Source of the DNA: a virus
Strand: one strand, 5' to 3'
Virus record (IMG/VR): IMGVR_UViG_3300025122_004743
Coordinates: 1-27,918 of that record
DNA length: 27,918 nt
Below are positions 3,067 through 22,837 of this stretch, one piece after another; position 1 is the first letter of the stretch, and each line of letters opens with the position of its first letter. Below the pieces are notes generated by a model, which ran no database searches, was not told where the DNA came from, and saw nothing but the letters and a program-made list of their open reading frames with translations. A program made the translations under genes and the position numbers.

Positions 3067-3070
3067 ACAA

Positions 3071-5252: not shown

Positions 5253-5623
5253 TTTTTACTAACGGATGTTTCGACATCCTTCATCGAGGACACGTCGAAT
5301 TGCTGAAGTATTGCAAATCACTGGGAACTGTGGTTGTCGGGCTAAACAGTGATGTCGGTGTTCGAGGGCTGAAGGGTGACACTCGTCCCTATAACAACGA
5401 AACCGATAGAAAACTAGTCCTTGAGGCATGCCGCTTTGTTGATGAGGTGATTATTTTTGATGAACAAACTCCGTGGGAGTTAATAAAAAGAGTAAAACCT
5501 GATATAGTAGTCAAAGGTGGAGACTACAGAAAAGAAGATGTAGTCGGCAATGATCTTGCTGAAGTAAAAATCTTTAATTTTGTGGACGGCTATTCTACAA
5601 CAGGTATTTTGGAAAAAATGTAA
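5243..5623 (+). CDS. rfaE2: D-glycero-beta-D-manno-heptose 1-phosphate nucleotidyltransferase (HldE C-domain type)
   Basis: This 126-residue protein is a compact match to the adenylyltransferase half of HldE. It has VVFTNGCFDILHRGHVELL with the nucleotidyl-transfer motif H-x-G-H, GLNSDVGVRGLKGDTRPYN, the DIVVKGGDY segment, and the C-terminal GYSTTGILEKM that matches the GCSTT.II end of HldE. It joins a nucleotide (ADP, or GDP in HddC-type pathways) to a sugar 1-phosphate, most likely heptose. The start is a GTG at 5243 overlapping the previous gene by 10 bases; an ATG does not fit because the motif begins right after. Splitting kinase and transferase into two genes, separated by epimerase and reductase genes, is unusual compared with fused HldE. 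Confidence 0.9.
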   Translation: MSVVFTNGCFDILHRGHVELLKYCKSLGTVVVGLNSDVGVRGLKGDTRPYNNETDRKLVLEACRFVDEVIIFDEQTPWELIKRVKPDIVVKGGDYRKEDVVGNDLAEVKIFNFVDGYSTTGILEKM

Positions 5624-6958: not shown

Positions 6959-7287
6959 CTTTATATCTAATAGTATCGATTTCTGTTATCTTAAACGGGT
7001 TTCTAATTTGGTACTTAGTAAAACTATTACGAAAATTTCTTTTTATTTCGGAAACTATTGCCGACTTATATCTGACGTGCAGGGCCTTTCGGATATTTGC
7101 CAAGTCCATGTACAGCATGGATACTTATCATGGTGAACCGATGATCCAGGAGTTAATAGTGAGAATGAAAGAAGTTAATTTAGAAATAGAAAATTTTAGA
7201 GAAGTTTTTGAGTATGCCCTGGACACCGAAATAGAGGAGGAATTTGATGCCGCCGAAGAGGAAGCGTCGCAAGAGCAAGAGCACTAA
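6955..7287 (+). CDS. Small membrane-anchored protein of unknown function
   Basis: 110 residues. Residues 2-22 (LYLIVSISVILNGFLIWYLVK) form one hydrophobic helix followed by basic residues, so the protein is probably inner-membrane anchored with a cytoplasmic remainder. The middle (SMDTYHGEPMIQELIVRMKEVNLEIENF) is likely helical and the tail is strongly acidic and Glu-rich. Small proteins of this layout occur beside the late sigma gene in marine T4-like phages, to my recollection. The last 41 bases overlap the sigma gene in another frame. Confidence 0.65.
   Translation: MTLYLIVSISVILNGFLIWYLVKLLRKFLFISETIADLYLTCRAFRIFAKSMYSMDTYHGEPMIQELIVRMKEVNLEIENFREVFEYALDTEIEEEFDAAEEEASQEQEH
7234..7240 (+). 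promoter_or_regulatory. Strong ribosome binding site for the late sigma factor gene
   Basis: GAGGAGG lies 6 bases before the ATG at 7247, inside the coding sequence of the preceding membrane-protein gene. It favours 7247 over the TTG at 7244. Confidence 0.65.
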
Positions 7288-7951
7288 AAATCATTATTTT
7301 ACTCAAGTTCACGAAGACGCAATAGTAAAATACGCCAACACCAACGATCTTGCGTTGCGGACACAGCTGTATATTCAATACATCCAGCCTGCTTTTGACC
7401 AGATGGTCGATAAAATCATTTATACGTATAGGTTTACTACCCTTCCGAATATTGATTATTTAAAAGATGATTGCAAGGTGTGGCTCACCACCATTTTAAA
7501 CAAATACGATCCGAATAAAGGATCGAAAGCATTTTCTTATTTTAGTGTTGTAACAAAAAATTGGTTTATCCATAAGGTTAAGCGGACTCAAAAACGCAAT
7601 CAAACCGAAGTCTTTATGGAGGATCTTCTTAATAAACTGGATGAAGATTTAGTTTCTGATGAGCCAACTTATGAACAAAAAAGAACCGAACTGGAATTTT
7701 GGACGTCTCTAAATCACGAGATTGATACCTGGAATTCTTTTATGCTTAAAGAAAATGAAAAAAAAGTGTTGATGGCAGTTCGCATTTTGTTAGACTCGGC
7801 CGACACAATCGAAATTTTCAATAAAAAGGCTATTTATTTATACCTACGAGAAATTACGGGGCTTAATACGAAACAAGTTGTTAACAACTTAAATAAGTTG
7901 AGAAAAAGGTATAGGGTATTTAAAGACAAATGGGAAAGCGGCGAAATTTAA
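7247..7951 (+). CDS. 55: Late-transcription RNA polymerase sigma factor, T4 gp55-like
   Basis: 234 residues from ATG 7247. After a very basic N-terminus (PPKRKRRKSKSTKNH) it has a sigma-region-2-like core: DDCKVWLTTILNKYDPNKGSKAFSYFSVVTKNWFIHKVKR, where the YDPNKG.KAFSYFS..A-like pattern matches region 2 of gp55 and other sigma factors. A C-terminal helical part (LREITGLNTKQVVNNLNKLRKRYR) resembles a small helix-turn-helix. In T4, gp55 directs host polymerase to late promoters with the gp33 and gp45 partners. Length and position ahead of the tail genes fit. It overlaps the preceding gene by 41 and the next by 22 bases. Confidence 0.85.
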   Translation: MPPKRKRRKSKSTKNHYFTQVHEDAIVKYANTNDLALRTQLYIQYIQPAFDQMVDKIIYTYRFTTLPNIDYLKDDCKVWLTTILNKYDPNKGSKAFSYFSVVTKNWFIHKVKRTQKRNQTEVFMEDLLNKLDEDLVSDEPTYEQKRTELEFWTSLNHEIDTWNSFMLKENEKKVLMAVRILLDSADTIEIFNKKAIYLYLREITGLNTKQVVNNLNKLRKRYRVFKDKWESGEI

Positions 7952-8244
7952 GCTTAGACGATTACATAGAGGAAACAACCACCAACATTCGTGAGGATCG
8001 TGCCCTGGCAAAATCCTTGTTGATGGATGCTATCAATGACATGAAATTGTCCGATTCGGCGCGCAAAGAACTGGGGCCCATTGCGGCAAAGTATGTCGAA
8101 AATCTGCAGCGCTCCAATGAACAAATGGTAAAGCTAGCCGGCCTCCTGCAGAAACAAAAATTCCAGTCGCATGCCTTATCCGAACAAGATAAAGAACAAC
8201 TTTTTGATCTTTTGAATGAGGATCCATCCACCGATGGTAATTAA
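7930..8244 (+). CDS. Small hypothetical helical protein
   Basis: 104 residues, predicted almost wholly alpha-helical and charged (RALAKSLLMDAINDMKLSD, KYVENLQRSNEQMVKLAGLL), with an acidic end. No enzyme motif, signal or membrane segment. The start overlaps the sigma gene by 22 bases with only a weak AAAGA ahead of it. It could be a polymerase- or DNA-associated small protein because of its position, but that is guesswork. Confidence 0.65.
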   Translation: MGKRRNLSLDDYIEETTTNIREDRALAKSLLMDAINDMKLSDSARKELGPIAAKYVENLQRSNEQMVKLAGLLQKQKFQSHALSEQDKEQLFDLLNEDPSTDGN

Positions 8245-9724
8245 GTTCTCCAATCAGCACTTAAGTCGCATGCGAGAGACGAACGCGGCTGCGTCGCTTC
8301 CTCTGGCCGTTTCCTCCAAAGCGGCGATGAATGGTTTTTTGGCTGACGCGTATGCGAGAAACGCTTTACGAAATGTTGATGAATTTTACGGGCTTGTTGT
8401 TTATCAAATGGTCCGTAGCAACCCATCGGCTGATTGCTTTGGATCTCAGGTTGTAGAGGAAGGAAACGAGAGTAAATCGGTAAACGATTGCCCTCGTTAT
8501 AAAGTTTATATTCCTGAACTAGAGTGTCGCCCCTTTCCTGAAACCTATACGGATCCTGTTATATCTACCTATAGAGAAATGTGCGCCGCAACCGGTATAC
8601 TCACGGCAGTTGGAATAGGATCAATTGTAGTGGTGAAGTTTCTAAATTTTGCGACCTTAGGTCGCCCCCTCATAGTTGGGGTCGAGGGCGCCATTGAGGG
8701 CGGCATGGTACCAGTCCAGCGTACGAACTTGAGTACTGCCCATACCGGCGGCCTCAAAAAAGGTCTTCCCTTTAACCCGAACCAACGTGCTATGGTGGTG
8801 GGAGACTCAATGAGTCAGACACCCGGTAGTTTTGGAGGGTGGCTCGGCCGATTCCTTCAAGAAGCTGGTTTCGAAGTGAAACCGGCCACCGAGCGCACCA
8901 AAGATGGCGGAACTGGCACCTATCCGCATCCTGCGGGGGTCATCTCCTATCCCGGCGAGGCCACCTCGCACTACGCCAGCAAAGCCAAGGGCGGCGCCAA
9001 CAGTTTCCAAGAGCATCTGGCCAAGTGGCGCCCTCAATTGCTTATCGTGGCCCTCGGCGCAAACTCCGCGTCGCTGGGAATCCCTCAGGGGTCTTACAGC
9101 GTTGGCAGGCGTTGCAGGGGCCCCGCAATCCAACACGACACCCCTGCGGGCAGTGACGACGAAACTGTCTTCACCAGGAGACATCCCGATGGCACACCGG
9201 GCGGTTGCCGGAAGCAGGGCCCTCTGGCCCCCAAGAAGGCGAAATACCAGAGTTATATGAAAGAATTTGTAAATATTGCAAAGGGGGCTGGAGTGCAGCG
9301 CATCATCTGGTTTGGTCCTAGCTACATGAGTGGCCCTTATGGAAATGTGCCGTTCAAGGTTACAAAAAGAGCGTGGAAGAGTCTTAAAAGATCGGGCTTC
9401 GAATTCAGCAAGGAACTCATCGGCAAGGAGCGCGACTGGGGTACCAGCGGCCTTGAAGAGGGCGCAAAAAACGTTCGCCTCTGGCAAAAGGAAACACTTC
9501 CTGGCCTCGGTGTGGAGTGGTACGATTCCTATTCTATGACGCGCGAGCTTAGTAATAGATCGGACGGACTTCATTGGGACCAGCCTAACTACAAAATTTG
9601 GGCCCAAAGAGCCTGGGGCGCCGCCTTTAGTAGTGGCAAAGCAGCCGACGTACTTACGCGCTCAAAGGCTATGAAAGCCGTCGCCGATACAACAGTTGGC
9701 TTCGGAACGGGGGCGGCCGCATGA
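8234..9724 (+). CDS. Baseplate-hub-like protein with C-terminal SGNH hydrolase domain
   Basis: 496 residues from ATG 8234 (GAGGA 11 bases upstream; an in-frame ATG at 8216 is the alternative). Residues 1 to about 165 share the pattern YG.VV...VYIPELE..P.P...DP....Y....G.GSIV with the next two genes, probably an OB-fold hub domain. From residue 185 an SGNH hydrolase follows: block I VVGDSMSQTP (Ser192), block III ALGANSAS (Asn277) and block V SDGLHWDQPNY (Asp444, His447). Such enzymes deacylate glycans or lipids, so on a tail tip it may strip acyl groups from the host surface. A GC-rich, Arg/Gly/Pro-rich stretch at about residues 285-340 looks inserted. It overlaps the next gene by 4 bases. 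Confidence 0.8.
   Translation: MVIKFSNQHLSRMRETNAAASLPLAVSSKAAMNGFLADAYARNALRNVDEFYGLVVYQMVRSNPSADCFGSQVVEEGNESKSVNDCPRYKVYIPELECRPFPETYTDPVISTYREMCAATGILTAVGIGSIVVVKFLNFATLGRPLIVGVEGAIEGGMVPVQRTNLSTAHTGGLKKGLPFNPNQRAMVVGDSMSQTPGSFGGWLGRFLQEAGFEVKPATERTKDGGTGTYPHPAGVISYPGEATSHYASKAKGGANSFQEHLAKWRPQLLIVALGANSASLGIPQGSYSVGRRCRGPAIQHDTPAGSDDETVFTRRHPDGTPGGCRKQGPLAPKKAKYQSYMKEFVNIAKGAGVQRIIWFGPSYMSGPYGNVPFKVTKRAWKSLKRSGFEFSKELIGKERDWGTSGLEEGAKNVRLWQKETLPGLGVEWYDSYSMTRELSNRSDGLHWDQPNYKIWAQRAWGAAFSSGKAADVLTRSKAMKAVADTTVGFGTGAAA
8941..9240 (+). other. GC-rich island inside the SGNH-hydrolase gene
   Basis: By hand count about 193 of these 300 bases are G or C (64%), against about 101 of 300 (34%) at 22381-22680 in the gp6 gene. 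All reading frames stay open for long stretches here, including a long antisense frame, as expected for GC-rich DNA. It spans the part of the hydrolase between block II and the end of the Arg/Gly/Pro-rich stretch. Confidence 0.7.
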
Positions 9725-11049
9725 GCGAAACCGAACAGAAAGGCTTAGGTACCTTCGGAGAAAATTACGAATACGGTTCGTGGAATACACTGCGGGATTC
9801 TACGCGCCCGTCAAGTGACCCCAACCGAAGCAGCCAGATAGACAAAATTAACAGGGCCCTTCAAGGGGTTTATGAGAAAGATACCTTGGCTGGAGTTAAA
9901 CACTGGTATGGAGTGGTTGTGCGACAGATAGATAGGATAGGATCACGTCCTTGCATAAAGCTCTCCCATAGTAGTACATCTGAATCTCCCGCGTCAACAA
10001 CGATGTACAACGTGTATATTCCAGAGGTTGAATCGTTACCGATTCCTGTTTCCAAGAATGATCCGATTTTAATGGACTATAAAGATGTTCGTGCATCGCT
10101 GGATTTAGCTTCGACAGTAGGCGCCGGCGCCATTGTCAAAATTAGATATGATAATCCTGAGACGTTTTCATGCCCGGCTATAATAAGTGTGGCAGGATCC
10201 GTCTCTGCGGATTTTATGCCAGCGTTGAGGAGCAGTTCGCGGTCTATAGCCTCGTCAGGTACGAGCACTGCGATAAGCAGCGGGTGTGGTAATATGAAAT
10301 GGCCCGCCGGCAAGCAGGGTGGTCTCAAAAAGTGGAAGAATGGCAAGCTTACTTATGCTGAACTAGCGCATTTTAGAGAACCTATGAAAGACTTGATGAA
10401 GTTTATTTCGGCCCACGAGGGAACTTATTATTCAGTCAATCGCGGCTGCGCAGGCGACACGCGTGGTAAGTGGACGATCCACGGTAAGAACATAACCCAA
10501 ATGACCATAAAGGAGATACAGAGTTACTCGAGGGGTGGCTCGAAGAAGGACGAGGTCGAGATCTCGTCCTGTCCCCCATATCACGGTTCGAAACGAGGCC
10601 TGTTCGCAGTGGGGAAGTTTCAGTGGATCCCCGAGACCTTCAAATCTCAAATCCGAGCGCTCGGTATAGACAGAAATTTGATATTTAATAAGGAAGTCCA
10701 AGACATTATGGGTCTCAATCTAGCATTGAATTCGATGCCGCTACTGGGAAAATACATCTTCGGGATGATCGCTGACCCTTGTAACGGCGGTCAACACCTT
10801 GCGCTGGTGTGGAGATCAATTGCGTTGCAATACGAGCGCTGCAAGGATGGTAAATGTTGCCCCCGCGGCTATAGTGCTTCGTGCGGCGGCGCCGGCGGAA
10901 ACCCGACGAGAAACATCGGGGAGAAGGAAGGTCGTTCTCCGGATGATATCATTGCGTTAATGCACCGCGCGCGCCAGAATGTATTAAATACTCCCGCAGC
11001 AGTAGCAGTGCTGCAAGCAAAGGGATACGTAGGGAGCGGTACAGTATAA
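9721..11049 (+). CDS. Baseplate-hub-like protein with C-terminal muramidase-like domain (tail lysozyme)
   Basis: 442 residues. The first about 160 match the flanking paralogues (HWYGVVVRQIDR, NVYIPEVESLPIPVSKNDP, GAGAIVKIRYDNP), followed by a Ser/Thr-rich linker. From about residue 215 comes a lysozyme-like domain: FISAHEGTYY with Glu233 as the predicted catalytic acid, a TIKEIQ helix, and GLFAVGKFQWIPETF near residue 298, equivalent to the G+YQ..P.TW signature of phage muramidases and transglycosylases. The order hub domain then lysozyme is that of T4 gp5, which digests peptidoglycan during tail penetration; no gp5-type beta-helix repeat is seen. At least seven cysteines lie in the enzyme half, four in a 15-residue cluster. 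The ATG overlaps the previous stop; TAATG leads to the next gene. Confidence 0.8.
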   Translation: MSETEQKGLGTFGENYEYGSWNTLRDSTRPSSDPNRSSQIDKINRALQGVYEKDTLAGVKHWYGVVVRQIDRIGSRPCIKLSHSSTSESPASTTMYNVYIPEVESLPIPVSKNDPILMDYKDVRASLDLASTVGAGAIVKIRYDNPETFSCPAIISVAGSVSADFMPALRSSSRSIASSGTSTAISSGCGNMKWPAGKQGGLKKWKNGKLTYAELAHFREPMKDLMKFISAHEGTYYSVNRGCAGDTRGKWTIHGKNITQMTIKEIQSYSRGGSKKDEVEISSCPPYHGSKRGLFAVGKFQWIPETFKSQIRALGIDRNLIFNKEVQDIMGLNLALNSMPLLGKYIFGMIADPCNGGQHLALVWRSIALQYERCKDGKCCPRGYSASCGGAGGNPTRNIGEKEGRSPDDIIALMHRARQNVLNTPAAVAVLQAKGYVGSGTV

Positions 11050-12371
11050 TGCTTCCGTTGATTACATTCCAAGGAATTTTAGAGACGTTTGGTTTTGGGC
11101 ACCTGAACCCATTCAGCGAGACGAAGTCAGTCCAGATAAGCCAACGTCGCAGTACCTCTGTCAGCGCCATGAATACAGCCTTGCGCACACACTATAGTAA
11201 AAATTGCTTAACGGATGTAACTGAATACTACGGGGTTGTGGCCAAAGTTATCGATCGAAGTGTTGTTTCTTATGCTAATAAAAATAGCTGGGCCCAGCGC
11301 GAGGGTGTTAGTGGAATAGCTGCCGATCCTTATCAGGTTTATAAGGTTTATCTGCCCGAACTTGAATGTCGACCGGAGCCTGAATCGGAGTTGGATCCGG
11401 TTATAGCTACCTATGAAGAAATTCCTGCAGCGCCCGATCTTTCTATGACTATTGCAGTTGGCGCTATTGTGAAAATAGCGTATGGAGATCCTTTTAGTAT
11501 GAGGCAGCCCGAAATAGTTGCTGTGGAGGGAGCGCTTCCGGGCGGCGCAATGCCCGTGTCGCGGCTTAGTATTGTTGATACTCACGGCGATGGCAATAAG
11601 TTAGAGACAACGACGGCAGGCGGTGCGTCAGGCGCAGAGGTCGATAAACCGGAGAACGCCCCGGCCCTCGCAACGAATAGATCCGGACGCACAGGCGCGC
11701 CCGGTAAGCTCAAGGAAATTCCCGGTAACAATAACTGGCGCTCGGGAAGGATTGAGACTTTTGAATCAATGCAACATTTACAGACAAAAGTTGGAATAAA
11801 GATTATTGTTAATCTGTCTGCTGATGCTATGTGGGGCCAAAAAGATGATCGGAAGATGTTCGGTGCCCAAAAGAATCAGTCGTGCGGGCTGCTCCCCAAG
11901 GATCAGGGAGACCGTTTCCAGGGGCGCCCTGATAGTTGTTGTGATTCTGCCAAGGGGAGGAACTGTGCAGAACATTGCCCGGGCGCTTGTGAGCCTCTTT
12001 GGGCTGCTGCACTCGGGATAAAGTATTTGGACTTTTACATTGGCGGCAGCCCGCCAAACGATCAGCGGTGGGGAGAAATAGAAAAGTCGCTCCGGGAGGG
12101 TAATACTCTGATTCATTGCAAGGCCGGCACGGACCGCACCGGTGCGGTGGTGGGTCGCTGGATGAAAGTGATAGGTGCCCCGGAAGCCAGAAGCGATTTC
12201 GCACTTCTTGACTATGTACGCAATACTGGTTCGCATCGGCAGCCTACCAAAAACTGCAAAGGAAACAAGGGCGAGTCCAATCCATGCGGGTGGGATAAGA
12301 GAAATCCGAAGCTTAAGTACTGGATGATCAAAGGCCGCCGCTGCCCGAGTGGCCAGTATGGATGCCGCTAA
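11049..12371 (+). CDS. Baseplate-hub-like protein with C-terminal tyrosine-phosphatase-like (CX5R) domain
   Basis: 440 residues. The N-terminal part again has EYYGVVAKVIDR, KVYLPELECRPEPESELDP and VGAIVKIAYGDP, close to the gene at 8234. After a Gly/Ala-rich linker (about 190-225) a phosphatase-like domain follows: a KVGIKIIVNLS strand, GIKYLDFYIGG, PPNDQRWGEIEKSL and the P-loop IHCKAGTDRTGAVVGRWM. The CX5R motif (Cys357, Arg363) plus the RTG ending is the signature of the cysteine phosphatase superfamily; Asp328 or Asp338 could be the general acid. Residues 278-319 hold six cysteines and look like an insert. Substrate could be a phosphorylated glycan, lipid or protein; on a tail tip a surface phosphate is plausible. 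GGGAG at 11031-11035 precedes the start. Confidence 0.8.
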   Translation: MLPLITFQGILETFGFGHLNPFSETKSVQISQRRSTSVSAMNTALRTHYSKNCLTDVTEYYGVVAKVIDRSVVSYANKNSWAQREGVSGIAADPYQVYKVYLPELECRPEPESELDPVIATYEEIPAAPDLSMTIAVGAIVKIAYGDPFSMRQPEIVAVEGALPGGAMPVSRLSIVDTHGDGNKLETTTAGGASGAEVDKPENAPALATNRSGRTGAPGKLKEIPGNNNWRSGRIETFESMQHLQTKVGIKIIVNLSADAMWGQKDDRKMFGAQKNQSCGLLPKDQGDRFQGRPDSCCDSAKGRNCAEHCPGACEPLWAAALGIKYLDFYIGGSPPNDQRWGEIEKSLREGNTLIHCKAGTDRTGAVVGRWMKVIGAPEARSDFALLDYVRNTGSHRQPTKNCKGNKGESNPCGWDKRNPKLKYWMIKGRRCPSGQYGCR

Positions 12372-12421: not shown

Positions 12422-13441
12422 ATGGACCCATTAAAACGATTCGGCGCACCGCGAAAGAGTTCGCCTGTTTATGATCTTAGATGTTTAAGCGCAGCAAAAA
12501 CAAAGCGCTATGATAAGTTACCTAACACTATAGAAAAGGCTGCCTTTCTCACGGGCCCGGGCCAACAAAAGCGGCCAACTTATGATTGTCCGTCTTTTAA
12601 CGAACTTCATGGTAAAGAAGTGGTTTTAGGAGGCCCCAAAAAGGGCGCCGGTAATGCATGGATAGTTCTGGGGCTCGATCGAACTGGGTTTATGAAAGGC
12701 TTTGCAACAGAACAAGCCTCTCACTGCGCAGCGGTTGATATTGTCGCCGGACGTCAAGGGTTTACTGCTGCTTCTCATGAAATCGATGGCACCCCAATTC
12801 TTGTAGATCCTAATTTTAACGATGATGCGGCCAGAGTTTACTTGAGTCAGAGATGCGAGGTTGACGCTGCCTTTGGTTTCGAACGTGCGAAGTCGAGCCC
12901 ACCCCGCTCTACTGTCGCTGCTAAAGCGGATACGATTAGACTAATAGCTCGCGAGAACATAAAATTTATCACACGAACCGATGAATTAAATTCACAGGGA
13001 GGAGCTCTTGGTGACGCATGGAAAGGGGGGTACGGAATTGATCTTATCGCGTGCAACGACCTAGACACTTTACAGCCAATGGTTAAGGGAGATAACCTGG
13101 TGTCCTGCTTGGACGATATCATAGATATGTTAATTATTACACTAAGTATAGTTAACACGTATACGGCTGAAACACAAAAATTGCATTCAAAGCTTTTACC
13201 CCACGATCACATGTCTCCTTTTTATGCAAACCCAACGGCCCCTGATTTTAAGGGCATTATACCCGAGGGCATGAAGGTTATAATAAATAATGTTTGTGAT
13301 GCTACTGTGGCCCTTCAACAGGGAAAATTGGCACTCACACAATTAAAAACCACTTATTTGAAATCGACGGGAGTTGAAGCAACTGAAAAGGGGACGAAGA
13401 AGTCGATGCACATTTTGAGTCCTTATAATTCTAATAACTGA
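12422..13441 (+). CDS. Putative virion/baseplate structural protein
   Basis: 339 residues; AGGAAG lies about 12 bases before the ATG. No enzyme motif. The centre (VAAKADTIRLIARENIKFITRTDELNSQGG) resembles the ALKADxIxIxGREGIxIxT pattern of phage tail-spike-associated proteins, where residues alternate as in beta structure. The C-terminal part is helical (CLDDIIDMLIITLSIVNTYTAETQKLHSKL). Position directly after the three hub-like genes and before the giant protein points to a baseplate hub or spike component. Function is inferred from context only. Confidence 0.7.
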   Translation: MDPLKRFGAPRKSSPVYDLRCLSAAKTKRYDKLPNTIEKAAFLTGPGQQKRPTYDCPSFNELHGKEVVLGGPKKGAGNAWIVLGLDRTGFMKGFATEQASHCAAVDIVAGRQGFTAASHEIDGTPILVDPNFNDDAARVYLSQRCEVDAAFGFERAKSSPPRSTVAAKADTIRLIARENIKFITRTDELNSQGGALGDAWKGGYGIDLIACNDLDTLQPMVKGDNLVSCLDDIIDMLIITLSIVNTYTAETQKLHSKLLPHDHMSPFYANPTAPDFKGIIPEGMKVIINNVCDATVALQQGKLALTQLKTTYLKSTGVEATEKGTKKSMHILSPYNSNN

Positions 13442-13453
13442 GAAACGTATATT

Positions 13454-16400
13454 ATGGCAACGTTAGATGAATATCAATTAGATGGTGCCGCCGCCAACGC
13501 GGACGGTTATCGTTCAAAGAAGCGGAACATTCCTTTTTATTCTGTTGAAGACAAAAGAATAAAGGTTAAACTTTTATATCCCGAATTCTCGGCAACGAAT
13601 CCGTTCGCCGCTGCGCTGCCCAGCATTAGGACCAGGGCTGTTAATCGCCTTACCTTACATTACTTTCCTGAGTACTATCTTTATTATCGCACTTTCACAC
13701 GTAAGAAGGAAGCTGCCTTTCCTGAGAACTCCCCACTAGAAATGGCTTATCGACGCCTTCGTGAGAGTATGAGCCAGGGGATAACGGCCAATCATTATAG
13801 GCCTCATGACCCCCACCTTCGAAAAGATAAAGACATAGTTTTAGCATCATTTTCTGGCTTCGGTTTTGAGCTGGCACGACCAGAAGTCGAGGCACTTAAA
13901 TTAAAGGTAGGCCCCTCGAATCCTATATACCAGAAAGTTCAACGCTTTAGACTTCCATCGGAATATGAAACTATTACATTTGTGACTCGATCTCCCAAAG
14001 AAATAAAAGCAGTTTTAGCAGCTCTTGAATTGTTGCCGGACCTGGACGGTCTTAGAAACTCTTTGCTCTTGTTTAATGGGGACGAAGGTATTACCGCTGC
14101 TACTGCACATACAACCCTGCAGGTGGGCTCTCTTATGCGCGATAATGCTCTCGCACAGGACGGTCTCGCCAGTTATCAGGAACAATTAAATGGTTTTGAG
14201 GGATCATTGCCAATTAATTTGAATTTTAATGATATGGAACGGGGAATGATGCAAATTTTAAACGGTGTCGTAGTGGAGGGCATTGTAAAAGAATTGACTG
14301 ATGTGCATGAGCCAAGTGGATTGGTTAGTGGTCCTTATATTGAATTTGGTGAGGCCGACACAATTACGCTAGGCTTTGGAATCAAAGATGGCGATGCGGC
14401 TATTTCTTCTATTTCTTATTTAGTCCGAGCAGCATCACAAAATCAGCAGCCGCTGAGAACGGGTTATATGACAAATGTGCTTTATAACAAGGAGTTTAAT
14501 GATCCGCTCATATTAGCTACTTTAAAAGGTTATGAAAAACTCGTAGCAGCGATGGCACTCGCCCGACGATTAGGGGGAACTCCTTCTTCTTTTATGGACT
14601 TTTTAAAGGACAATCCTGAGGGCTTCGGCGCCGGTGAGAATTTTGTATGGGATGACCTCGCTGCTCCGCCCAAACCACAACCAACAGATCATATATATTT
14701 AAGAGAAGCTCATCGATTAGGCATCATCGATCTTGGGGATACCGAGAATCTTGATGAGGCCTTTTTCGACACGATGGATCCAGAAACTCTTGCAAGATTT
14801 AAGGCTGAGGTGCGCGATAATCCTGAAGTATATGCTAGAGTCCGCGCATCAATAAAGAATAAGACCCTCGGCACATCCGCTGATATTCTTGGTGAAATCA
14901 CCAAAGTTTTGGAGTCAGGAGGCCCCTTAATGATGGGTGGGGTTAAAGCTAATTCCCCTCTCGGTGCACTATTGAGGAAGATTGGTATCCAGGAGCTTGC
15001 AAAAGAAGCGTGGATTTGTGCCACTTTTGGATTGGCGCCAGCATTTGCTAGAGTCTCGGGCGCCGGCACAAAGGCGATTAATAAAGTCCGTTCACAGCAG
15101 GGCTTTCCTATCCCGGAAGCTCCTCGCGGCCGCCTAGGCCCTCCTGTAAAATTGAAGAAACGTACGGGTAAACCAAAGCCTCCGAAACCATCCATAACAA
15201 TACCGAAGCCTCCTCCCCCTGCGAAACTTAAGCTTAAGACAATTGATGGGAAATTGTGGAATAAGATCTTAAAAGTAATGGTCGACACTTTAATGCAGGG
15301 CGTCTTAGAAATAATTAAGGCTTTGGCAAAATTATTGAAAGAGTCGTGCAAGTTAAATAATCCACGTTCTGATGATTACGGGGCCAACGATGTGGGGGAC
15401 CTGGTTAATGATAATTTAAATGACGATTTTCTAAATTTACCAAGTATTTCTAATGATTCTCCCCTCGATCATTTGTTTGCCAATGACGGATTGACGCCTG
15501 CCCAAGTTTTGGGTGGTGGAAGCAGCTACGGAGACCGCGGTGCCGGCTATCTGAGTGATCTATCTGCGATTTTGAGTTCTATGGACATTTGCTTCTTATT
15601 TACCAATCGCAGCGAGTTGTCGGAAGCGACAATGGACAAAATAATTAATTTTAATTTATCTTATCACGATTTAGGTATCAGAGCAGCCCTGAATACCCCA
15701 AGTGCAATTGGCGGCTTCTTTGCTAATTTAGCAAGATTCGTGGATGTTAGTGCTTTTTGCAATGAGATTGCCAATGAATTGTACCAAGCTAACATAGATA
15801 ACATCTGCTTGTTAGAGGAAGAGATTCCTGATAGGCTTACCGACCTACTGCAAGACATTGCGGAAAATGGGATCGATGTTGCAGACCCAGCAGAGGAGAT
15901 TCAGTCAAGGCTAGATTGCCCTGAGCGAGATGATTTTATAAATAATCCTTTGATGAATACATCTATTCCCATCCTTTTGAATACTGTAGCCGATATCGTG
16001 GAAAGAGAATTTATAAATGGGGTTTCGGCCGCCCAACAAATTTTGAAAGAGCCCACTGTTTCCCAAACTGATTCATCGAGAGTAGTATCTGAAAGCATTA
16101 ATGCTGCCCAACGATCAGGCCTAGTAGTAGCTGACGATGATCCCGCAGAAGAACCTGCATCTAAGGTTTCGCAAGATATTTTAAAGGGTGTTGCCAAAGC
16201 TTTTGAGGGAATGGATAGTTTATTTGATCGACTAAATGAGATCTGCGACGTACCGTCGATTTTGGGAGTAGAGGCCGACGCCGCAGAAGATGCTCTCCAA
16301 GTGATTATCGATGTTATTAGAGAGATGCTCAGTGATCCTGGATTTGTGACAGGGATCCAGGAGATTGAGAATCGTATTACAGAGATTTCTGGCGCCTTTA

Positions 16401-19400
16401 ATCAGCCTGGGGGCGCCTCTTCGGTGGCCACCCAGTATGAATTTCCTGTGCGCTTTAAAGAACGATTTGAAGACTATCTCGCTGAGTCTCCAACATTTAA
16501 ACCCATTGCAAGTATGGGGATATCGGATTTTGATACCTTTCGGACGACCGGTCACGTAAAATCTAAGTATTTTAATGCGTACTCAAATTATAGTGATTAT
16601 ACTAGTTATAAGCCTATAAATATAAAATTTACTCTTCCTAGGCAAGACCCACCGCGTTTGGAAGTTGACCCCCACAAGCCTCCTTATGGAGAGATAGGCG
16701 GTATCACCATCCCTCGATTTAGGAAAGTGAAGGAGGCCGGCCAGCACCCCGGCGATCATCTTCTTGTTACGTTTCCTACTGCCGATGACGCCACTAAGGG
16801 TGGGGCGTTTGCAAACATTACTCTCAAATCTCAATTAATCCCCGGTACATCCGAAGATAACGGCTTCACTATGGAGGATCCCGTTCCCTTGGTCGCCAAT
16901 AGTAGAGATACTAATCCTTATGTTTCGCTATTTTCTGATACCCTTATAAACCAAATTAAATTTGGTGGAAACTTTGCTGCTATTCTGAATGCTGACCCAC
17001 AGACGAAAAAAAGGTACACTCGGGAAATTGACACAGTGTTCTTTCCTGCTGCATTTGCTGGCCAGGTGGAGGGGATGTTTAATTTCATTCAGAGCAATGG
17101 AATTTTTGATACGGAGAGACTAAATTCACTTAATTTCTTTTACAACAATGCGGGCTGTCTACCCGAGGACGCTGCCGACCTACTAGACATGGGCCCATCG
17201 CCTGCGGGAACTCCCGCAAAAGGTCGCAATTCTATTTTAGATCTAGTAAATGACGAACTCCTGGGCGCCATGTGTAATGACAAGGCTGCAGCCGATGATG
17301 GTAATCCGACGGGTACACAAATTCGAGACGTTCTTCGGTTCGCAGTCTTTCAAATGTTTATACAGATTCACATTGCTCAGTTCATAATTAAGAATATATT
17401 TGTATTCTCTGCCTTTGAAATTGATGAACTCTTAGAAATTCCAACTATTAAACGATTTATGTCTGTAACAATTCGTAATCAGATAATGAAATTAATTAAG
17501 ACTAAACCACTCGTGGGCGAAAAGTTAGTAGAATATTATAATAAAAAGCTGCGCCGCCCGAATATAAGCATGCAAGGCGGCTTGTTGGATTCGGATGGAA
17601 ATATAGTTTTATCGGCCGAGAGAGCGCTGGGGCTTACGGATATCCCGCTCCTTATAGAATATCTGGTTCAAGATCGTATTACCAGATCTCGAAAATCAGT
17701 TTCTAATGCGGTTAAAAGATGCTCCAATTTGACAAATCCTAAATCCTTTGATCGGGCGTTTATTGAAGACGTGGTAACTGTCCAACCAAGTTTCTTGGGC
17801 GCCGGCCCCGCCGGCAGCGGCGCGAGCACCGTGGGCGGCACGGGGTACATATGGGCACGCCACAATCCGAAACATGCGCCGGCAAACGAACCAATGGGGG
17901 GTTATTCCACAAAGGCCGGCTCCAACCGGATTAAATATCTTGACATAGCCCGGGAAAAATTTGAGTTCGACGATCCCGTCGCAAAGACTTTGCGTTATGG
18001 AAAATTAGTATTAGAAAGACAAGTTGTATGGGAAAGGGTTGAGACCGAAGATGGCAAACCTGTTCCTAATATGCTGCGTTATACCTCCGGGCATGGGTAT
18101 GGCCTAGAATTAAGTATTTTTCGGGCCGTGATGTTTGATTCAGCCTTGAGAACAAGGGCTTTCGGGACCAACACTAGTCGCAAACTTAAATTTACAAATT
18201 TAGCAATGCAATACAATATTGTATACTATATGCCAGACGATAGAACCGGCGGCGTTCCATCGGGCCAGTTATTTTTTGAAGATAATCCATTGTCCAAGAG
18301 CAAAAGAATGCTTCTCGGCTCCAACGGTATAGTATTAAACCGATTTGTGTTGGCCAGATTAAATGGTACATTGCCTTTGGCAACCGAAATCTCAACGACG
18401 GAAACAGCACTGCAAAATCGATGGTCAACTACAACAGGTACCTGGCAATCTATTTCGGTGCCCGTTTTAGAGACGCAAATCGCGGATCGGCCGCTCGGCT
18501 ATGGTTCGACGGTAACCAATAGTGAATTAGCCTTAATAACGCAAGACCCAGTTTTTCAAGATTATTTTGATAAGACTTTTAATAGAAGTATAACGAATTT
18601 AGTTCCTATTATGTATAATTTTTATTTGACAACCGAGAGCTTCCCCGCCATGGACGGCATTCTTATGGGTGCGAAGCTTCGTTGTTTGGACATCTTTTAT
18701 GATTCGGTACTCAATGACGACCCCAGCGTACAGGGCCCCCCCGCGTATACATCTCCGCAGGCTGAAGCCGCCGCCGCGGCCGGCGATGACGAATTCCTTG
18801 ACACCGTAAGTCCGTCTGCGCGCGATTTCATTTTGAAGATGTTGATCGAGACTCCCATTAACATCTTGCGGGGTGTTTCAGAGATGATGGATCCGCACGT
18901 GGGAATTAGCAACCTGATCCGCAAGATTACGGCCGCTATTTTTCTCGAGCTGTCTAAGGCAATTGACAAGTCTGAGCCCATTAGATTTTTGCGAGAAGGC
19001 CCCAAGTCACAGGCGCAACTAGACGCCGAAGAGGCCGAACGTGCCGCCGCCACAGAACCGGCTCCCGCCCAAGCCCCGACCGATGCCGCTCCTAACGCCC
19101 CCGCCCAAGCCAACGGTCTTCCAGCGGGAGCCCAATTGTACAGGCTCGAATTATCTCCTGGCAAGTATGATGAAAAATATGAATATGGCCGCCTCCCTCA
19201 AGAGCCTCCGGGATCCCCAGCGATATGGTTCACACGAGGGATCCCCTGCGACCCCAACACCCCCTGGATTAACTTGTCAGAGCCCGAACCTAATGAAGTA
19301 GCAATTCATAGACTTGAGACACACGGAAAATCTGAATTCATCTCCCGCTTTCCAAGCGCACCACGCCAAGCTCAAGGTGTCGTAGAATATACCTTGTCTA

Positions 19401-20611
19401 AATCTGGCCGCGTACGCACCTACCAGTACGCAAAGAACTCCGACGGAGAGTGGCTCACGCGCGAGACCCGCGCTGCAGCATCAACCCCATGGTCGGAGGC
19501 ACGTAATCTGACACGTGAGGGCAATACTCTGGCTATTCAGATTCTAGAGGAGGGGGTAACCGGTCGAGGGGGCCCCGCAACTCCAGTAAATCCTCCGCCC
19601 GCCGCCGACCCTGCGACACCCGACCTCGACCCTGCGACACCCGACCTCGACCCGACCGATATTCATCAGTCCATTCAAGAAGAGCAAGCTGCGCTAGCCG
19701 CTGAAGACACAGCAGCTGCAGTTTTGGCAGCCGCGGCAGCCGAGATCGCGGCCCTACCCATAGACACGGTTTTGCAGAATGGATCTCAAGGCGAAGCCGT
19801 GTTTATCCTGCAGGCCAAGCTCGAACAATTAGGATATACCCTTGAGCAATACGGGGTAGATGGGATCTTCGGTACCGAAACAGAAACTCATGTTGAAGAA
19901 TTTCAGTCCGACAAAGGGATTACTATTGATGGCATTGTAGGCCCAGAGACCTGGGGTGCCATAGTAAATGCGCTTGAGGCTCTAGCAGAAGCAGAAGCGA
20001 ACATAGCTCCTACACCGGGCGTGGGGCCATTCCCGGACATTACTGGGGAGAAGGTTATGGAACTCATGTTCTGTGCCTTAGCTATCGCCATGGAGATTGC
20101 AACCCAAGGATTTATTCTTGGCGACGGCGCAAACGCAGGGGATGGAGGCAAAGATCGCCGAGGAGTTGATACGGATACTCGGGGCCGCCTCCCGGCGCCG
20201 GACTCCGGCTTCTTCTTGGGAACGGAGGGCCTCAGAGTCCCGGGCGCAGTGTTCTTGGGGAATCGACCCAAGCCCGACGCCAACGGCGTCTCCAGACCTT
20301 TCTGGGAGCCGGGTATGGGTATTACCGATCTCACTTATCAAGAAGGCCAAGAGGATCCTCGTGATCCGCGAAATAATGTTCCAGAGGCAATTAGGGATAA
20401 TTTGTTCCCTCGAATAGATATGGATGGTGTGGATTTCACTGGGACCTTCTTGGGCCTCTTAATGCTGCCCCCGGGCCCGTTTGGAATTGTGTATCTATTA
20501 CTGATGTTAATAAAGAATGCGCTGGAGGATGCCTTGAAGTCAGATGAATCTGATGAGTCGGGAGACCCCATGAGTAATGTTTCCGGGGAAGAAAGTGCAA
20601 GTGAGTGTTAA
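13454..20611 (+). CDS. Giant structural protein (2385 aa) with peptidoglycan-binding domain
   Basis: One uninterrupted 2385-codon frame between hub-like genes and gp25, so probably a tail or baseplate component. Landmarks: a Lys/Pro-rich linker at about 559-596; long helical stretches from 600 to 1050; a hydrophobic helix FQMFIQIHIAQFIIKNIFVF near 1300; a Gly-rich GC-high loop near 1450; an Ala-rich segment at about 1765-1775; an Ala/Pro linker at about 1857-1890; a small unrecognised domain at about 1890-2035; an Asp/Pro linker with a tandem repeat at about 2047-2070; and a PG_binding_1 domain at about 2104-2175 (LQNGSQGEAVFILQAKLEQLGY, GVDGIFGTET, EFQSDKGITIDGIVGPETW). Two hydrophobic stretches and a Ser/Asp/Glu-rich tail follow. 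It may anchor the tail tip to peptidoglycan; the rest is unassigned. Confidence 0.8.
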   Translation: MATLDEYQLDGAAANADGYRSKKRNIPFYSVEDKRIKVKLLYPEFSATNPFAAALPSIRTRAVNRLTLHYFPEYYLYYRTFTRKKEAAFPENSPLEMAYRRLRESMSQGITANHYRPHDPHLRKDKDIVLASFSGFGFELARPEVEALKLKVGPSNPIYQKVQRFRLPSEYETITFVTRSPKEIKAVLAALELLPDLDGLRNSLLLFNGDEGITAATAHTTLQVGSLMRDNALAQDGLASYQEQLNGFEGSLPINLNFNDMERGMMQILNGVVVEGIVKELTDVHEPSGLVSGPYIEFGEADTITLGFGIKDGDAAISSISYLVRAASQNQQPLRTGYMTNVLYNKEFNDPLILATLKGYEKLVAAMALARRLGGTPSSFMDFLKDNPEGFGAGENFVWDDLAAPPKPQPTDHIYLREAHRLGIIDLGDTENLDEAFFDTMDPETLARFKAEVRDNPEVYARVRASIKNKTLGTSADILGEITKVLESGGPLMMGGVKANSPLGALLRKIGIQELAKEAWICATFGLAPAFARVSGAGTKAINKVRSQQGFPIPEAPRGRLGPPVKLKKRTGKPKPPKPSITIPKPPPPAKLKLKTIDGKLWNKILKVMVDTLMQGVLEIIKALAKLLKESCKLNNPRSDDYGANDVGDLVNDNLNDDFLNLPSISNDSPLDHLFANDGLTPAQVLGGGSSYGDRGAGYLSDLSAILSSMDICFLFTNRSELSEATMDKIINFNLSYHDLGIRAALNTPSAIGGFFANLARFVDVSAFCNEIANELYQANIDNICLLEEEIPDRLTDLLQDIAENGIDVADPAEEIQSRLDCPERDDFINNPLMNTSIPILLNTVADIVEREFINGVSAAQQILKEPTVSQTDSSRVVSESINAAQRSGLVVADDDPAEEPASKVSQDILKGVAKAFEGMDSLFDRLNEICDVPSILGVEADAAEDALQVIIDVIREMLSDPGFVTGIQEIENRITEISGAFNQPGGASSVATQYEFPVRFKERFEDYLAESPTFKPIASMGISDFDTFRTTGHVKSKYFNAYSNYSDYTSYKPINIKFTLPRQDPPRLEVDPHKPPYGEIGGITIPRFRKVKEAGQHPGDHLLVTFPTADDATKGGAFANITLKSQLIPGTSEDNGFTMEDPVPLVANSRDTNPYVSLFSDTLINQIKFGGNFAAILNADPQTKKRYTREIDTVFFPAAFAGQVEGMFNFIQSNGIFDTERLNSLNFFYNNAGCLPEDAADLLDMGPSPAGTPAKGRNSILDLVNDELLGAMCNDKAAADDGNPTGTQIRDVLRFAVFQMFIQIHIAQFIIKNIFVFSAFEIDELLEIPTIKRFMSVTIRNQIMKLIKTKPLVGEKLVEYYNKKLRRPNISMQGGLLDSDGNIVLSAERALGLTDIPLLIEYLVQDRITRSRKSVSNAVKRCSNLTNPKSFDRAFIEDVVTVQPSFLGAGPAGSGASTVGGTGYIWARHNPKHAPANEPMGGYSTKAGSNRIKYLDIAREKFEFDDPVAKTLRYGKLVLERQVVWERVETEDGKPVPNMLRYTSGHGYGLELSIFRAVMFDSALRTRAFGTNTSRKLKFTNLAMQYNIVYYMPDDRTGGVPSGQLFFEDNPLSKSKRMLLGSNGIVLNRFVLARLNGTLPLATEISTTETALQNRWSTTTGTWQSISVPVLETQIADRPLGYGSTVTNSELALITQDPVFQDYFDKTFNRSITNLVPIMYNFYLTTESFPAMDGILMGAKLRCLDIFYDSVLNDDPSVQGPPAYTSPQAEAAAAAGDDEFLDTVSPSARDFILKMLIETPINILRGVSEMMDPHVGISNLIRKITAAIFLELSKAIDKSEPIRFLREGPKSQAQLDAEEAERAAATEPAPAQAPTDAAPNAPAQANGLPAGAQLYRLELSPGKYDEKYEYGRLPQEPPGSPAIWFTRGIPCDPNTPWINLSEPEPNEVAIHRLETHGKSEFISRFPSAPRQAQGVVEYTLSKSGRVRTYQYAKNSDGEWLTRETRAAASTPWSEARNLTREGNTLAIQILEEGVTGRGGPATPVNPPPAADPATPDLDPATPDLDPTDIHQSIQEEQAALAAEDTAAAVLAAAAAEIAALPIDTVLQNGSQGEAVFILQAKLEQLGYTLEQYGVDGIFGTETETHVEEFQSDKGITIDGIVGPETWGAIVNALEALAEAEANIAPTPGVGPFPDITGEKVMELMFCALAIAMEIATQGFILGDGANAGDGGKDRRGVDTDTRGRLPAPDSGFFLGTEGLRVPGAVFLGNRPKPDANGVSRPFWEPGMGITDLTYQEGQEDPRDPRNNVPEAIRDNLFPRIDMDGVDFTGTFLGLLMLPPGPFGIVYLLLMLIKNALEDALKSDESDESGDPMSNVSGEESASEC
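19607..19653 (+). repeat. Tandem 21-base repeat in linker of giant protein
   Basis: Two perfect copies of a 21-base unit (19607-19627 and 19628-19648) plus five bases of a third, in frame, encoding repeated DPATPDL. It sits in the Asp/Pro-rich linker just before the peptidoglycan-binding domain. Length variation by slippage would keep the frame. Confidence 0.85.
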
Positions 20612-20632: not shown

Positions 20633-21022
20633 ATGTCAGGACTTTCACCAAGATTGCCGTTGATAGTCGACAGTGTCGACGGCCCATATCGACTGCACAA
20701 AACGTATGCAGGGCTAGCAAAGCAAAATTTTAAAATGCTATTATTAACGGCCCCCGGGGAAAGAATAATGAATCCAGATTTTGGTGTAGGCTTAAAAACG
20801 TATTTATTCGAGCAGAACGAGCCTGGAACTTATGCTGAAATTAACAATCGTATCCTTACACAAGTAAAGAGATACCTGCCTTTTATTGCAGTAAATAGAA
20901 TTGATTTTTCTATACCCGAAGGAGCTCTTGACTACTATCCCCATGATTTATCTATTTCTATACATTTTACAATCGTACCATTACAATCGAGTACTACGCT
21001 TGAAATCGGATTTGGTAACTAA
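20633..21022 (+). CDS. 25: Baseplate wedge protein, T4 gp25-like (GPW/gp25 family)
   Basis: 129 residues, the normal size for gp25. Family marks are YAGLAKQNFKMLLLTAPGERIMNPDFGVGLKTYLFE, where the PGER..NP.FG.GL..LF pattern is diagnostic, followed by a helix (INNRILTQVKRYLPFIAV) and two beta strands (LSISIHFTIVPLQ). In contractile tails it joins gp6 and gp53 in the baseplate wedge and helps start sheath assembly. A GAGAGGA site lies ahead of the ATG, and the gp6-like gene follows 18 bases on. Confidence 0.92.
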   Translation: MSGLSPRLPLIVDSVDGPYRLHKTYAGLAKQNFKMLLLTAPGERIMNPDFGVGLKTYLFEQNEPGTYAEINNRILTQVKRYLPFIAVNRIDFSIPEGALDYYPHDLSISIHFTIVPLQSSTTLEIGFGN

Positions 21023-21040: not shown

Positions 21041-22837
21041 ATGCCAAAGAAACTGCAATCCATAGATTATACTAGTCGCGATTTTGATTCGATTAGGCAA
21101 GACTTAGAAAATTACGCTAAGCGCTATTACCCTAATACTTATAAGGATTTTGGCGAAGCGTCGTTCGGTTCCCTAATGCTAGATACTGTTTCCTACATTG
21201 GAGATATTTTATCATTTTATGTTGATTACCAGGCAAACGAGAGTTTTTTCGACTCGGCTATTGAGTACACAAACGTTGTACGCCACGCTCGGCAATTTGG
21301 TTTTCGTCTTCCCACAAGTCCTTCCTCTTTTGGTCTTTTAACTTTTTACATTAAGGTACCTGCGGCCAATATTGGCGGAGGCCCTGACCTAAAGTATGCG
21401 GGTGTTTTAAGAGCCGGCTCTACTTTTGGCTCGATGGGGGGTGGGTCTTATACACTATTAGAAGACATAGATTTTTCAACACCCACTAATCAAATGGTCG
21501 CCGGCGAAGCGGATGCTACCAATGGGGATGCCACATCTTATATTATTAGAGCTCTGGGGCGCGCTATCTCTGGCCACGGGGTGGTAGAAGAGCGAGAAAT
21601 AGGAAATTTCCAGAGATTTTTGAAGGTGAATTTATCCAATACAAATGTGGCAGACATTTTGAGTGTTGTGGATACCGAAGGCCATCAGTATACGCAAGTT
21701 GATAATTTATCTCAAAATGTTATTTATAAAGCAATCCGCAATACCGATACCACCCGTGCGACGGTACCCAATATTTTAAAGGCTGTTCCCGTAGGCAGGA
21801 GATTCGTTTTAGAACAGACGGCAGTTGAGTCCTTTTTACAGTTTGGGTACGGTTCCGATTCTGAGTTGTTAAGTAATTCAGTGCTGGACCCAACGCATTT
21901 AATGTTGGACTTGAATGGTAGAGATTATATAACAGATGCAGATTTTGATCCCACCAAACTTATAAGCAGTGATAAATTTGGAGTTGCGCCCTCTAACACG
22001 GTCTTAAGGATTTCCTATAGGATTAATTCAAATCTAGATGTTAATGCTGCTATCAATACAATTAATTCGGTTGAGGATGTAAATTTTAGATTTCTTAATC
22101 AGACAGCCCTCATTCCTACTATGCGTGATAGCGTAGTGAATTCTCTAGAAGTAACTAATGAGCAGCCTTTTATAGGAAATATTGATCTTCCCTCTTCAAC
22201 TGAGATTAGGGAAAGAACTAGAAGTTATTTTGCCACACAAAATCGAGCTGTAACAGCTCAAGATTATCAGGCGATGGTGTACGGAATGCCTGGAAAATTT
22301 GGATCTGTTTACCGCGCTCGCCTCCTGAAGGATTTTCAGGAATTCAAGAGAAATTTAAATTTGTATGTAATTTCGACAGACACCAGTGGCAAATTGACGG
22401 CAGCCAATTCTATGCTCAAAAGTAATTTAAAGAATTGGATAACTCAATACAAAATGATCAACGATACAATCGATATTCTTGATGCCGAAATAGTAAATTT
22501 TGGAATTAAATATCAAGTTACTTTAGAGGCTAATGCAAATCGATACACTGTGATTAGTCGGGCCAATACAAGATTGTCAGCCTTTTACACCGATAATCCT
22601 TATGACATTGGGGAAAGAATTTTAATAAGCGATGTCTATAGAGAGTTATTAAAAGTAAAAGGGGTTTTAGATGTTTTCGACGTACAGATAATAGGGAAAC
22701 AGGGAGGCCCCTATTCCGAGAGTAACTTTGATTTTCAGAGCAAATTGTCAGTCGATGGACGAGCAATTCAAGCTGACAAAACTACCATTTTTGAATTAAA
22801 ATTCCCTAACAACGATATCCAAGGATCCATAAGATAA
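21041..22837 (+). CDS. 6: Baseplate wedge protein, T4 gp6-like (baseplate J family)
   Basis: 598 residues, close to the 660 of T4 gp6. The start IDYTSRDFDSIRQDLENYAKRYYPNTYKDF and the following GSLMLDTVSYIGDILSFYVDYQANESF are hallmark gp6/baseplate-J sequences. A later IDLPSSTEIRERTRSYFATQNRAVTAQDYQAM also matches the family (AVT..DYE). In T4 this protein forms the iris ring of the baseplate with gp7 and gp53. It directly follows gp25, the conserved order. The stop overlaps the next ATG by one base (TAATG). Base composition is AT-rich here, about 34% GC in 22381-22680. Confidence 0.92.
   Translation: MPKKLQSIDYTSRDFDSIRQDLENYAKRYYPNTYKDFGEASFGSLMLDTVSYIGDILSFYVDYQANESFFDSAIEYTNVVRHARQFGFRLPTSPSSFGLLTFYIKVPAANIGGGPDLKYAGVLRAGSTFGSMGGGSYTLLEDIDFSTPTNQMVAGEADATNGDATSYIIRALGRAISGHGVVEEREIGNFQRFLKVNLSNTNVADILSVVDTEGHQYTQVDNLSQNVIYKAIRNTDTTRATVPNILKAVPVGRRFVLEQTAVESFLQFGYGSDSELLSNSVLDPTHLMLDLNGRDYITDADFDPTKLISSDKFGVAPSNTVLRISYRINSNLDVNAAINTINSVEDVNFRFLNQTALIPTMRDSVVNSLEVTNEQPFIGNIDLPSSTEIRERTRSYFATQNRAVTAQDYQAMVYGMPGKFGSVYRARLLKDFQEFKRNLNLYVISTDTSGKLTAANSMLKSNLKNWITQYKMINDTIDILDAEIVNFGIKYQVTLEANANRYTVISRANTRLSAFYTDNPYDIGERILISDVYRELLKVKGVLDVFDVQIIGKQGGPYSESNFDFQSKLSVDGRAIQADKTTIFELKFPNNDIQGSIR

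What the first reader, a model, noticed from the sequence alone, without database searches (positions are those of the whole stretch)
11676..12371. Tyrosine-phosphatase-like domain on a baseplate-hub-type protein
The P-loop IHCKAGTDRTGAVVGRW (Cys357, Arg363) fits the CX5R cysteine-phosphatase signature with the RTG ending, preceded by the strand order usual in dual-specificity phosphatases. It is fused behind the same N-terminal domain as a neighbouring tail-lysozyme-like protein. Phage tail tips are known to carry lysozymes, depolymerases and deacetylases; I know of no described tail-tip cysteine phosphatase. Inference: it removes phosphate from host surface molecules (lipid A or core heptose phosphate, teichoic acid, phospholipid) or acts as an injected effector.
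Basis: partly seen in the sequence, partly recalled or inferred. Interest (0 to 1): 0.8.

Follow-up and report, generated by a model that had tools for sequence, protein, structure and literature searches.

The report
Phosphatase carried on a phage tail tip
An uncultivated tailed phage, and two relatives at the same genome position, carry a tyrosine-phosphatase-type enzyme in the tail-tip slot where related phages carry cell-wall-cutting enzymes, suggesting that some phages strip phosphate from the bacterial envelope as they enter.

Summary
ORF 11049-12371 (440 aa) has the P-loop HC(357)KAGTDR(363)TG at 12114-12143. Pfam Y_phosphatase3 matches at its curated cut-off. An AlphaFold model of the domain matches only PTP-superfamily structures among the 50 best PDB hits. 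The N-terminal ~186 aa are shared with two adjacent genes carrying an SGNH-esterase-like and a lysozyme-like C-terminus.

In 58 further viral contigs the same slot lies upstream of a conserved ~336-aa gene. It holds 1-3 carriers with VanY, amidase, M23, SLT, lysozyme, GDSL or DUF2272 cargo. Only the window and two other contigs have the phosphatase. A second phage group fuses a similar phosphatase to endolysin-like and PG_binding_1 domains, or to a membrane anchor.

Best explanation: a virion enzyme that removes a phosphomonoester from a cell-envelope molecule during penetration, with Cys357 as nucleophile, Arg363 binding phosphate and Asp362 as general acid. Fold, intact active-site residues and slot are shown; virion location, activity and substrate are inferred. 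An injected effector is the main rival. I found no published tail-tip cysteine phosphatase, but phosphodiesterases (GDPD) in phage tail modules are known.

The parts
11049..12371 (+). 440-aa tail-tip carrier with C-terminal PTP-superfamily phosphatase domain
11049..11606 (+). N-terminal carrier domain (residues 1-186), predicted five-stranded OB-like barrel with helices
   Evidence: paralogy; model; Foldseek best hits ribosomal uS12-type OB folds, weak (E=1.5e-3, TM below 0.5)
11685..12338 (+). PTP domain, residues about 213-430
12114..12143 (+). P-loop HCKAGTDRTG (Cys357, Asp362, Arg363)
   Evidence: H, C, A, G, D, R, T, G invariant in six relatives
11883..11990 (+). Cys-rich insert in the PTP domain (residues 279-314), present in all three tail-tip homologues, absent in the PG-binding group
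   Evidence: alignments
8216..9724 (+). Paralogous carrier with SGNH/GDSL-esterase-like C-terminus
   Evidence: N-domain; DUF459 only E=0.13, but homologue L004:1374-3209 and other carriers match DUF459/GDSL
9721..11049 (+). Paralogous carrier with lysozyme-like C-terminus
   Evidence: phrog_37890 E=9e-10; tblastn to cyanophage proteins annotated lambda lysozyme, endolysin or late control gene D
12422..13441 (+). Conserved 339-aa gene bordering the slot, probable hub component
   Evidence: 63% and 44% identical in the two PTP-bearing contigs; relatives in 58 viral contigs
13454..20611 (+). 2385-aa giant baseplate-region protein with PG_binding_1 near its C-terminus (19787-19963)
   Evidence: Pfam E=1e-15
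20633..21022 (+). gp25-like baseplate wedge protein
   Evidence: Pfam GPW_gp25 E=1.4e-12
21041..22837 (+). gp6-like baseplate wedge (Baseplate_J)
   Evidence: PHROG 219/6 E=3.5e-19/2.3e-18; tblastn to a Flavobacterium phage baseplate wedge protein
7244..7951 (+). Late-sigma-like gene on the other side of the slot
   Evidence: phrog_234 E=1.2e-4; relative in 44 of 58 slot loci

Best explanation
The gene encodes a modular tail-tip enzyme. Its N-terminal OB-like domain anchors it in the baseplate hub, as the OB domain does in T4 gp5. Its C-terminal PTP-fold domain is an active phosphomonoesterase exposed at the cell envelope during entry: Cys357 attacks the phosphate, Arg363 holds it, and Asp362 of the P-loop acts as general acid, as in MptpB-type lipid phosphatases that lack a WPD loop. 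It works beside the SGNH-esterase-like and lysozyme-like proteins of the two adjacent paralogues, removing a phosphate from an envelope molecule (most likely a phosphorylated sugar of LPS core/lipid A or of glycan bound to peptidoglycan; a lipid head group is second choice) so that the tail can pass or the other enzymes can reach their bonds. Shown by computation: fold, intact catalytic residues, fusion, paralogy, conserved slot and cargo census. Inferred: virion location, catalysis, substrate, cooperation.
For: Fold and catalytic residues. P-loop Asp essential and WPD loop absent in the MptpB-related family: PMC3091653. Fusion to a domain shared with lysozyme-like and SGNH-like neighbours in overlapping ORFs (overlaps at 9721-9724 and 11049). 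Baseplate setting. Cargo census at the same slot: 48 carriers and 61 slot proteins; apart from isolated weak matches (HTH_AraC, an Ig-like domain) only cell-wall, esterase or lysozyme families plus the phosphatase in three. Two further contigs with the PTP at the syntenic place: L141 (directly upstream of the 336-aa gene) and L138. Independent link of such a PTP to the cell wall: L095, 534 aa (phage endolysin-like region; PG_binding_1 E=3e-12 and Y_phosphatase3 E=4e-8), L094 PG_binding_1+PTP, L097 with hydrophobic N-terminal segment.
Against: The fusion to the carrier domain is read directly only in the window; in L138 and L141 the contig ends inside the phosphatase gene. The OB assignment is structural and weak, and no sequence similarity to T4 gp5 was found. 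PTPs are most often intracellular. No substrate evidence. The PTP is rare in the slot (3 of 59 contigs). The two PTP groups are only distantly related: leave-one-group-out scores of 34-38 bits barely exceed those of other phage PTPs.
Confidence: 0.6

Rival explanations
1. Injected effector: the tail tip carries the phosphatase into the cytoplasm (or its inner face), where it dephosphorylates host proteins, lipids or signalling nucleotides.
For: The weakly matching profile Tc-R-P is a polymorphic-toxin phosphatase (E=0.02); most studied PTPs act on intracellular targets (general knowledge).
Against: Other cargo in the slot is almost all envelope-acting; PG_binding_1 fusions and a version with a hydrophobic N-terminal segment in other phages; the Cys-rich insert suits an oxidising exterior (inference).
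Confidence: 0.15
2. Phosphate-binding adhesin: the PTP fold serves to bind a phosphorylated receptor, not to hydrolyse it.
For: Tail-tip proteins often recognise receptors, and inactive PTP domains that bind phospho-ligands are known (general knowledge); no tool result speaks for it.
Against: Cys, Asp, Arg and Thr of the P-loop are invariant in all six relatives, as expected for catalysis.
Confidence: 0.1
3. Not in virions: a late-expressed intracellular enzyme that only shares an assembly domain, for instance tied to the phage's sugar-biosynthesis genes at 861-5623.
For: Phosphosugar genes lie in the same window; virion content is untested.
Against: The N-domain is shared with the lysozyme-like and other cell-wall-enzyme carriers, and the gene lies in tandem with two of them next to baseplate genes.
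Confidence: 0.08

Closest known systems
T4 gp5 (baseplate hub subunit and tail lysozyme)
   Same: N-terminal OB-like domain followed by an enzyme that acts during penetration (PMC3004832), in a baseplate gene cluster
   Different: No detectable sequence similarity; no C-terminal beta-helix segment (the protein ends with the PTP domain); cargo is a phosphatase; three tandem paralogues instead of one gene
MptpB-type atypical lipid phosphatases (Pfam Y_phosphatase3)
   Same: HCxxGxDRTG P-loop with catalytic Asp, no WPD loop; best profile match in PDB
   Different: Window has Thr instead of the conserved Lys of the P-loop and an extra Lys directly after the Cys; Cys-rich insert; tail-tip fusion. 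Two members of the PG-binding group (L095, L094) do have HCxxGKDRTG
Siw14 / plant PFA-DSP phosphatases
   Same: Best structural matches of the model
   Different: 16-19% identity; intracellular inositol-pyrophosphate enzymes (general knowledge)
P. aeruginosa TpbA, a dual-specificity phosphatase
   Same: PTP fold matched by profile and structure; described as periplasmic (general knowledge)
   Different: Cellular regulator of biofilm formation (PMC4409338, abstract), not fused to a virion domain
Tail-associated GDPD of enterococcal phages (PMC10194240)
   Same: A phosphate-ester-cleaving enzyme encoded in phage tail modules
   Different: Unrelated fold; phosphodiesterase acting on teichoic acid, not a cysteine phosphomonoesterase

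Membership tests
PTP superfamily (Cys-based phosphatases) | CX5R(S/T) P-loop | tested here: met
   HCKAGTDRTG; invariant in relatives
PTP superfamily (Cys-based phosphatases) | PTP fold with strand-loop-helix P-loop | tested here: met
   AF2 pTM 0.69; all 50 listed Foldseek PDB hits are PTPs. TM-scores 0.33-0.44 by query length, so topology rather than fine geometry
PTP superfamily (Cys-based phosphatases) | phosphatase activity | not testable with these tools
   needs assay
MptpB-type atypical lipid phosphatases (HCXXGKDR[TA]G) | Lys before the P-loop Asp | tested here: not met
   Thr361 in the window, Thr in L141 and L138
MptpB-type atypical lipid phosphatases (HCXXGKDR[TA]G) | Asp before the P-loop Arg and no WPD-loop Asp | tested here: met
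   Asp362 invariant; no conserved Asp in the preceding loop
Pfam Y_phosphatase3 | score at curated cut-off | tested here: inconclusive
   22.2 bits against a cut-off of 22.2, only about 35 residues of the profile matched; L095 reaches 33.9 bits
T4 gp5-type tail lysozyme | N-terminal OB fold | tested here: inconclusive
   Five predicted strands; Foldseek hits are uS12-type OB proteins at E=1.5e-3, none of the listed hits is gp5
T4 gp5-type tail lysozyme | sequence similarity to gp5 | tested here: not met
   hhalign probability 0.7%, BLASTP of the lysozyme-like paralogue E about 1
T4 gp5-type tail lysozyme | C-terminal triple-stranded beta-helix | tested here: not met
   protein ends at residue 440 shortly after the PTP domain
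Carrier family of phage tail-tip enzymes (defined here by alignment A5) | shared N-domain in the slot next to the 336-aa gene | tested here: met

The most novel reading that the evidence does not exclude
The three tandem carriers assemble as a hetero-trimeric tail tip, each subunit bringing a different envelope enzyme (esterase, lysozyme, phosphatase), and the phosphatase removes a phosphate that blocks cell-wall or LPS cutting: a new lytic chemistry for phage entry. In favour: three tandem carriers in the window, in G035 (L005), in G009 (L008) and in L184, and three genes of this kind in L138. Against it as a general rule: most records have one carrier.
Probability: 0.15. Interest if true: 0.85.

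Novelty: new variant of a known kind. Interest (0 to 1): 0.62.

Why it matters
Phage tail tips are known to carry lysozymes, peptidases, depolymerases, esterases and phosphodiesterases. A cysteine phosphatase in an interchangeable tail-tip enzyme slot would add a chemistry to cell entry and point to a phosphorylated envelope component as a barrier or receptor in the hosts. The slot (a carrier domain with eight or so cargo classes between two conserved genes) is also a natural catalogue of envelope-active enzymes.

Tried and rejected
Chance motif: rejected by fold, profile and conservation evidence. Whole-protein tblastn in 50,697 phage records and the peptide-pattern scan of viral contigs found nothing; the P-loop DNA pattern with Lys directly after the Cys found none, the looser one found 62 contigs, most of them other PTPs and a few out-of-context matches. 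Sequence homology of the N-domain to T4 gp5 or to the S-CAM7 protein: not found. Bacterial relatives: three weak loci only, of no help for function. The mixed N-domain plus PTP alignment A3 misaligned the domains and was not used for folding. A rule of three carriers per phage: rejected as general. Common ancestry of the tail-tip and PG-binding PTP groups: not established. Literature searches for a tail-tip tyrosine or dual-specificity phosphatase: nothing relevant.

Full report
The window is a whole IMG/VR virus record of 27,918 bases, probably a fragment of a larger genome. It carries sugar-biosynthesis genes (861-5623), a late-sigma-like gene (7244-7951), three tandem paralogues (8216-9724, 9721-11049, 11049-12371), a 339-aa gene, a 2385-aa giant with PG_binding_1, and gp25- and gp6-like baseplate genes. 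The gp6-like protein is closest to phages of Microcystis and Flavobacterium and to an uncultured 484-kb phage, so this is a contractile-tail (T4-type) baseplate region.

Observation. The 440-aa protein has the P-loop HCKAGTDRTG at residues 356-365 with Cys357 and Arg363 as stated. Pfam gives Y_phosphatase3 at its cut-off and DSPc, PTP-NADK, PTP-SAK and Tc-R-P below theirs. Because these hits cover little more than the P-loop, I collected relatives and tested the fold.

Relatives of the phosphatase. A degenerate P-loop scan of 2.9 million viral contigs gave 62 stretches. Six of those records (two with the identical protein) carry the same kind of domain as judged by a joint profile. Group 1: contig 3300037586_004273 (L067/L093/L138) and contig 3300025122_000065 (L030/L092/L141), 43% and 49% identical to the window in the domain. 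Both contigs end inside the phosphatase gene, so their N-termini are not seen. Group 2: L024/L048/L095 (534 aa: phage endolysin-like region, PG_binding_1, PTP), L076/L094 (PG_binding_1, PTP) and L058/L097 (hydrophobic N-terminal segment, PTP). In group 2 the Y_phosphatase3 match reaches E=4e-8. Leave-one-group-out searches show that groups 1 and 2 find each other among the best hits but with little margin over other phage PTPs, so two independent recruitments remain possible; either way the domain is joined to cell-wall modules twice.

Fold. AlphaFold2 on the six-row alignment gives pTM 0.69, mean pLDDT 67, with the P-loop blocks above 80 and a poorly modelled Cys-rich insert. Foldseek against PDB lists 50 PTP-superfamily structures and nothing else at the top, led by Siw14, SsoPTP and PFA-DSP1, and including laforin and TpbA. 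Against viral models the best hit is A0A1B1IUT8, also 440 aa, 38% identical, E=5e-14, unnamed. The six relatives keep H, C, A, G, D, R, T and G of the P-loop invariant. No WPD-type Asp is conserved; in MptpB-related enzymes, which lack a WPD loop, the P-loop Asp is essential and the probable general acid (PMC3091653). The window's Thr361 replaces the Lys that defines that family, so I do not file it there.

Carrier domain. The N-terminal 186 residues are shared with the two upstream genes. Profiles of the domain found 45 viral loci and 48 non-redundant carriers, the window's three included. Its model has five strands and resembles OB folds, with best hits uS12 ribosomal proteins at E=1.5e-3 and low TM-scores. 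[quoted passage not shown]

The slot. A profile of the 339-aa neighbour found 58 viral contigs. In them the carriers lie directly upstream of that gene, and 44 of the loci also hold a relative of the late-sigma-like gene. Of 61 slot proteins scanned, Pfam finds VanY 9, Amidase_2 7, M23 6, SLT 6, Phage_lysozyme2 3, DUF459 3, DUF2272 3, GDSL 3, GDSL_2 2, Phage_lysozyme 1 and Y_phosphatase3 3; the set of 48 carriers also has Muramidase 5. The phosphatase occurs only in the window, L138 and L141. In the window and L138 it accompanies an SGNH-like and a lytic-enzyme-like carrier, in different order. Most contigs have one carrier, a few two or three.

Interpretation. The slot is an exchangeable place for enzymes that act on the cell envelope during entry. 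A PTP in this slot, with intact catalytic residues, is best read as an envelope-acting phosphomonoesterase of the virion. The substrate is open. A phosphorylated sugar in LPS or in glycan bound to peptidoglycan is my first choice, because the companions are a putative esterase and a lysozyme-like protein and because group 2 couples the domain to PG-binding modules; this step is inference. The injected-effector reading is less likely but not excluded. Fold, residues, paralogy, slot and census are shown by computation; virion location, activity, substrate and cooperation are inferred.

Novelty. Tail-associated phosphodiesterases are known (PMC10194240); I found no paper on a tail-tip cysteine phosphatase in the open library searched, which does not cover most subscription journals. 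I therefore rate it a new variant of a known kind (modular tail-tip enzyme with a new cargo).

Noticed in passing
window 861-5623: Phage-borne sugar genes: DegT aminotransferase, HldE-like heptose kinase (TIGR02198 E=8.5e-32), RmlC-like epimerase, Fcl-like epimerase and a cytidylyltransferase-like gene, next to the tail module.
   Followed up: partly
window 8216-12371; L139:997-4727; L184:2651-6540; L008:4330-8199: Three tandem carriers with different C-terminal parts in these phages, against one in most relatives; a hetero-trimeric tail tip is a testable idea.
   Followed up: partly
L072:3735-5564, L034:5429-7036, L061:1346-3196, L066:9827-11980: Large (535-717 aa) proteins with HC.AGADRTG P-loops lie beside structural-looking genes in what look like gut-phage contigs (judged by eye only); possible further virion phosphatases.
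   Followed up: no
L095:3702-5306 and L094:4200-5267: Fusions of PG_binding_1 (and an endolysin-like region in L095) with a Y_phosphatase3 domain, in contigs with a tail-sheath-like gene by eye.
   Followed up: yes
window 13454-20611: 2385-aa giant protein between the tail-tip slot and gp25, with PG_binding_1 near the C-terminus and otherwise no Pfam match; a gene of similar size holds the same place in L067 and L030.
   Followed up: partly
window 24392-27918: Gene cut by the window end, with a Laminin_G_3/concanavalin-like lectin domain, a likely receptor-binding tail protein.
   Followed up: no
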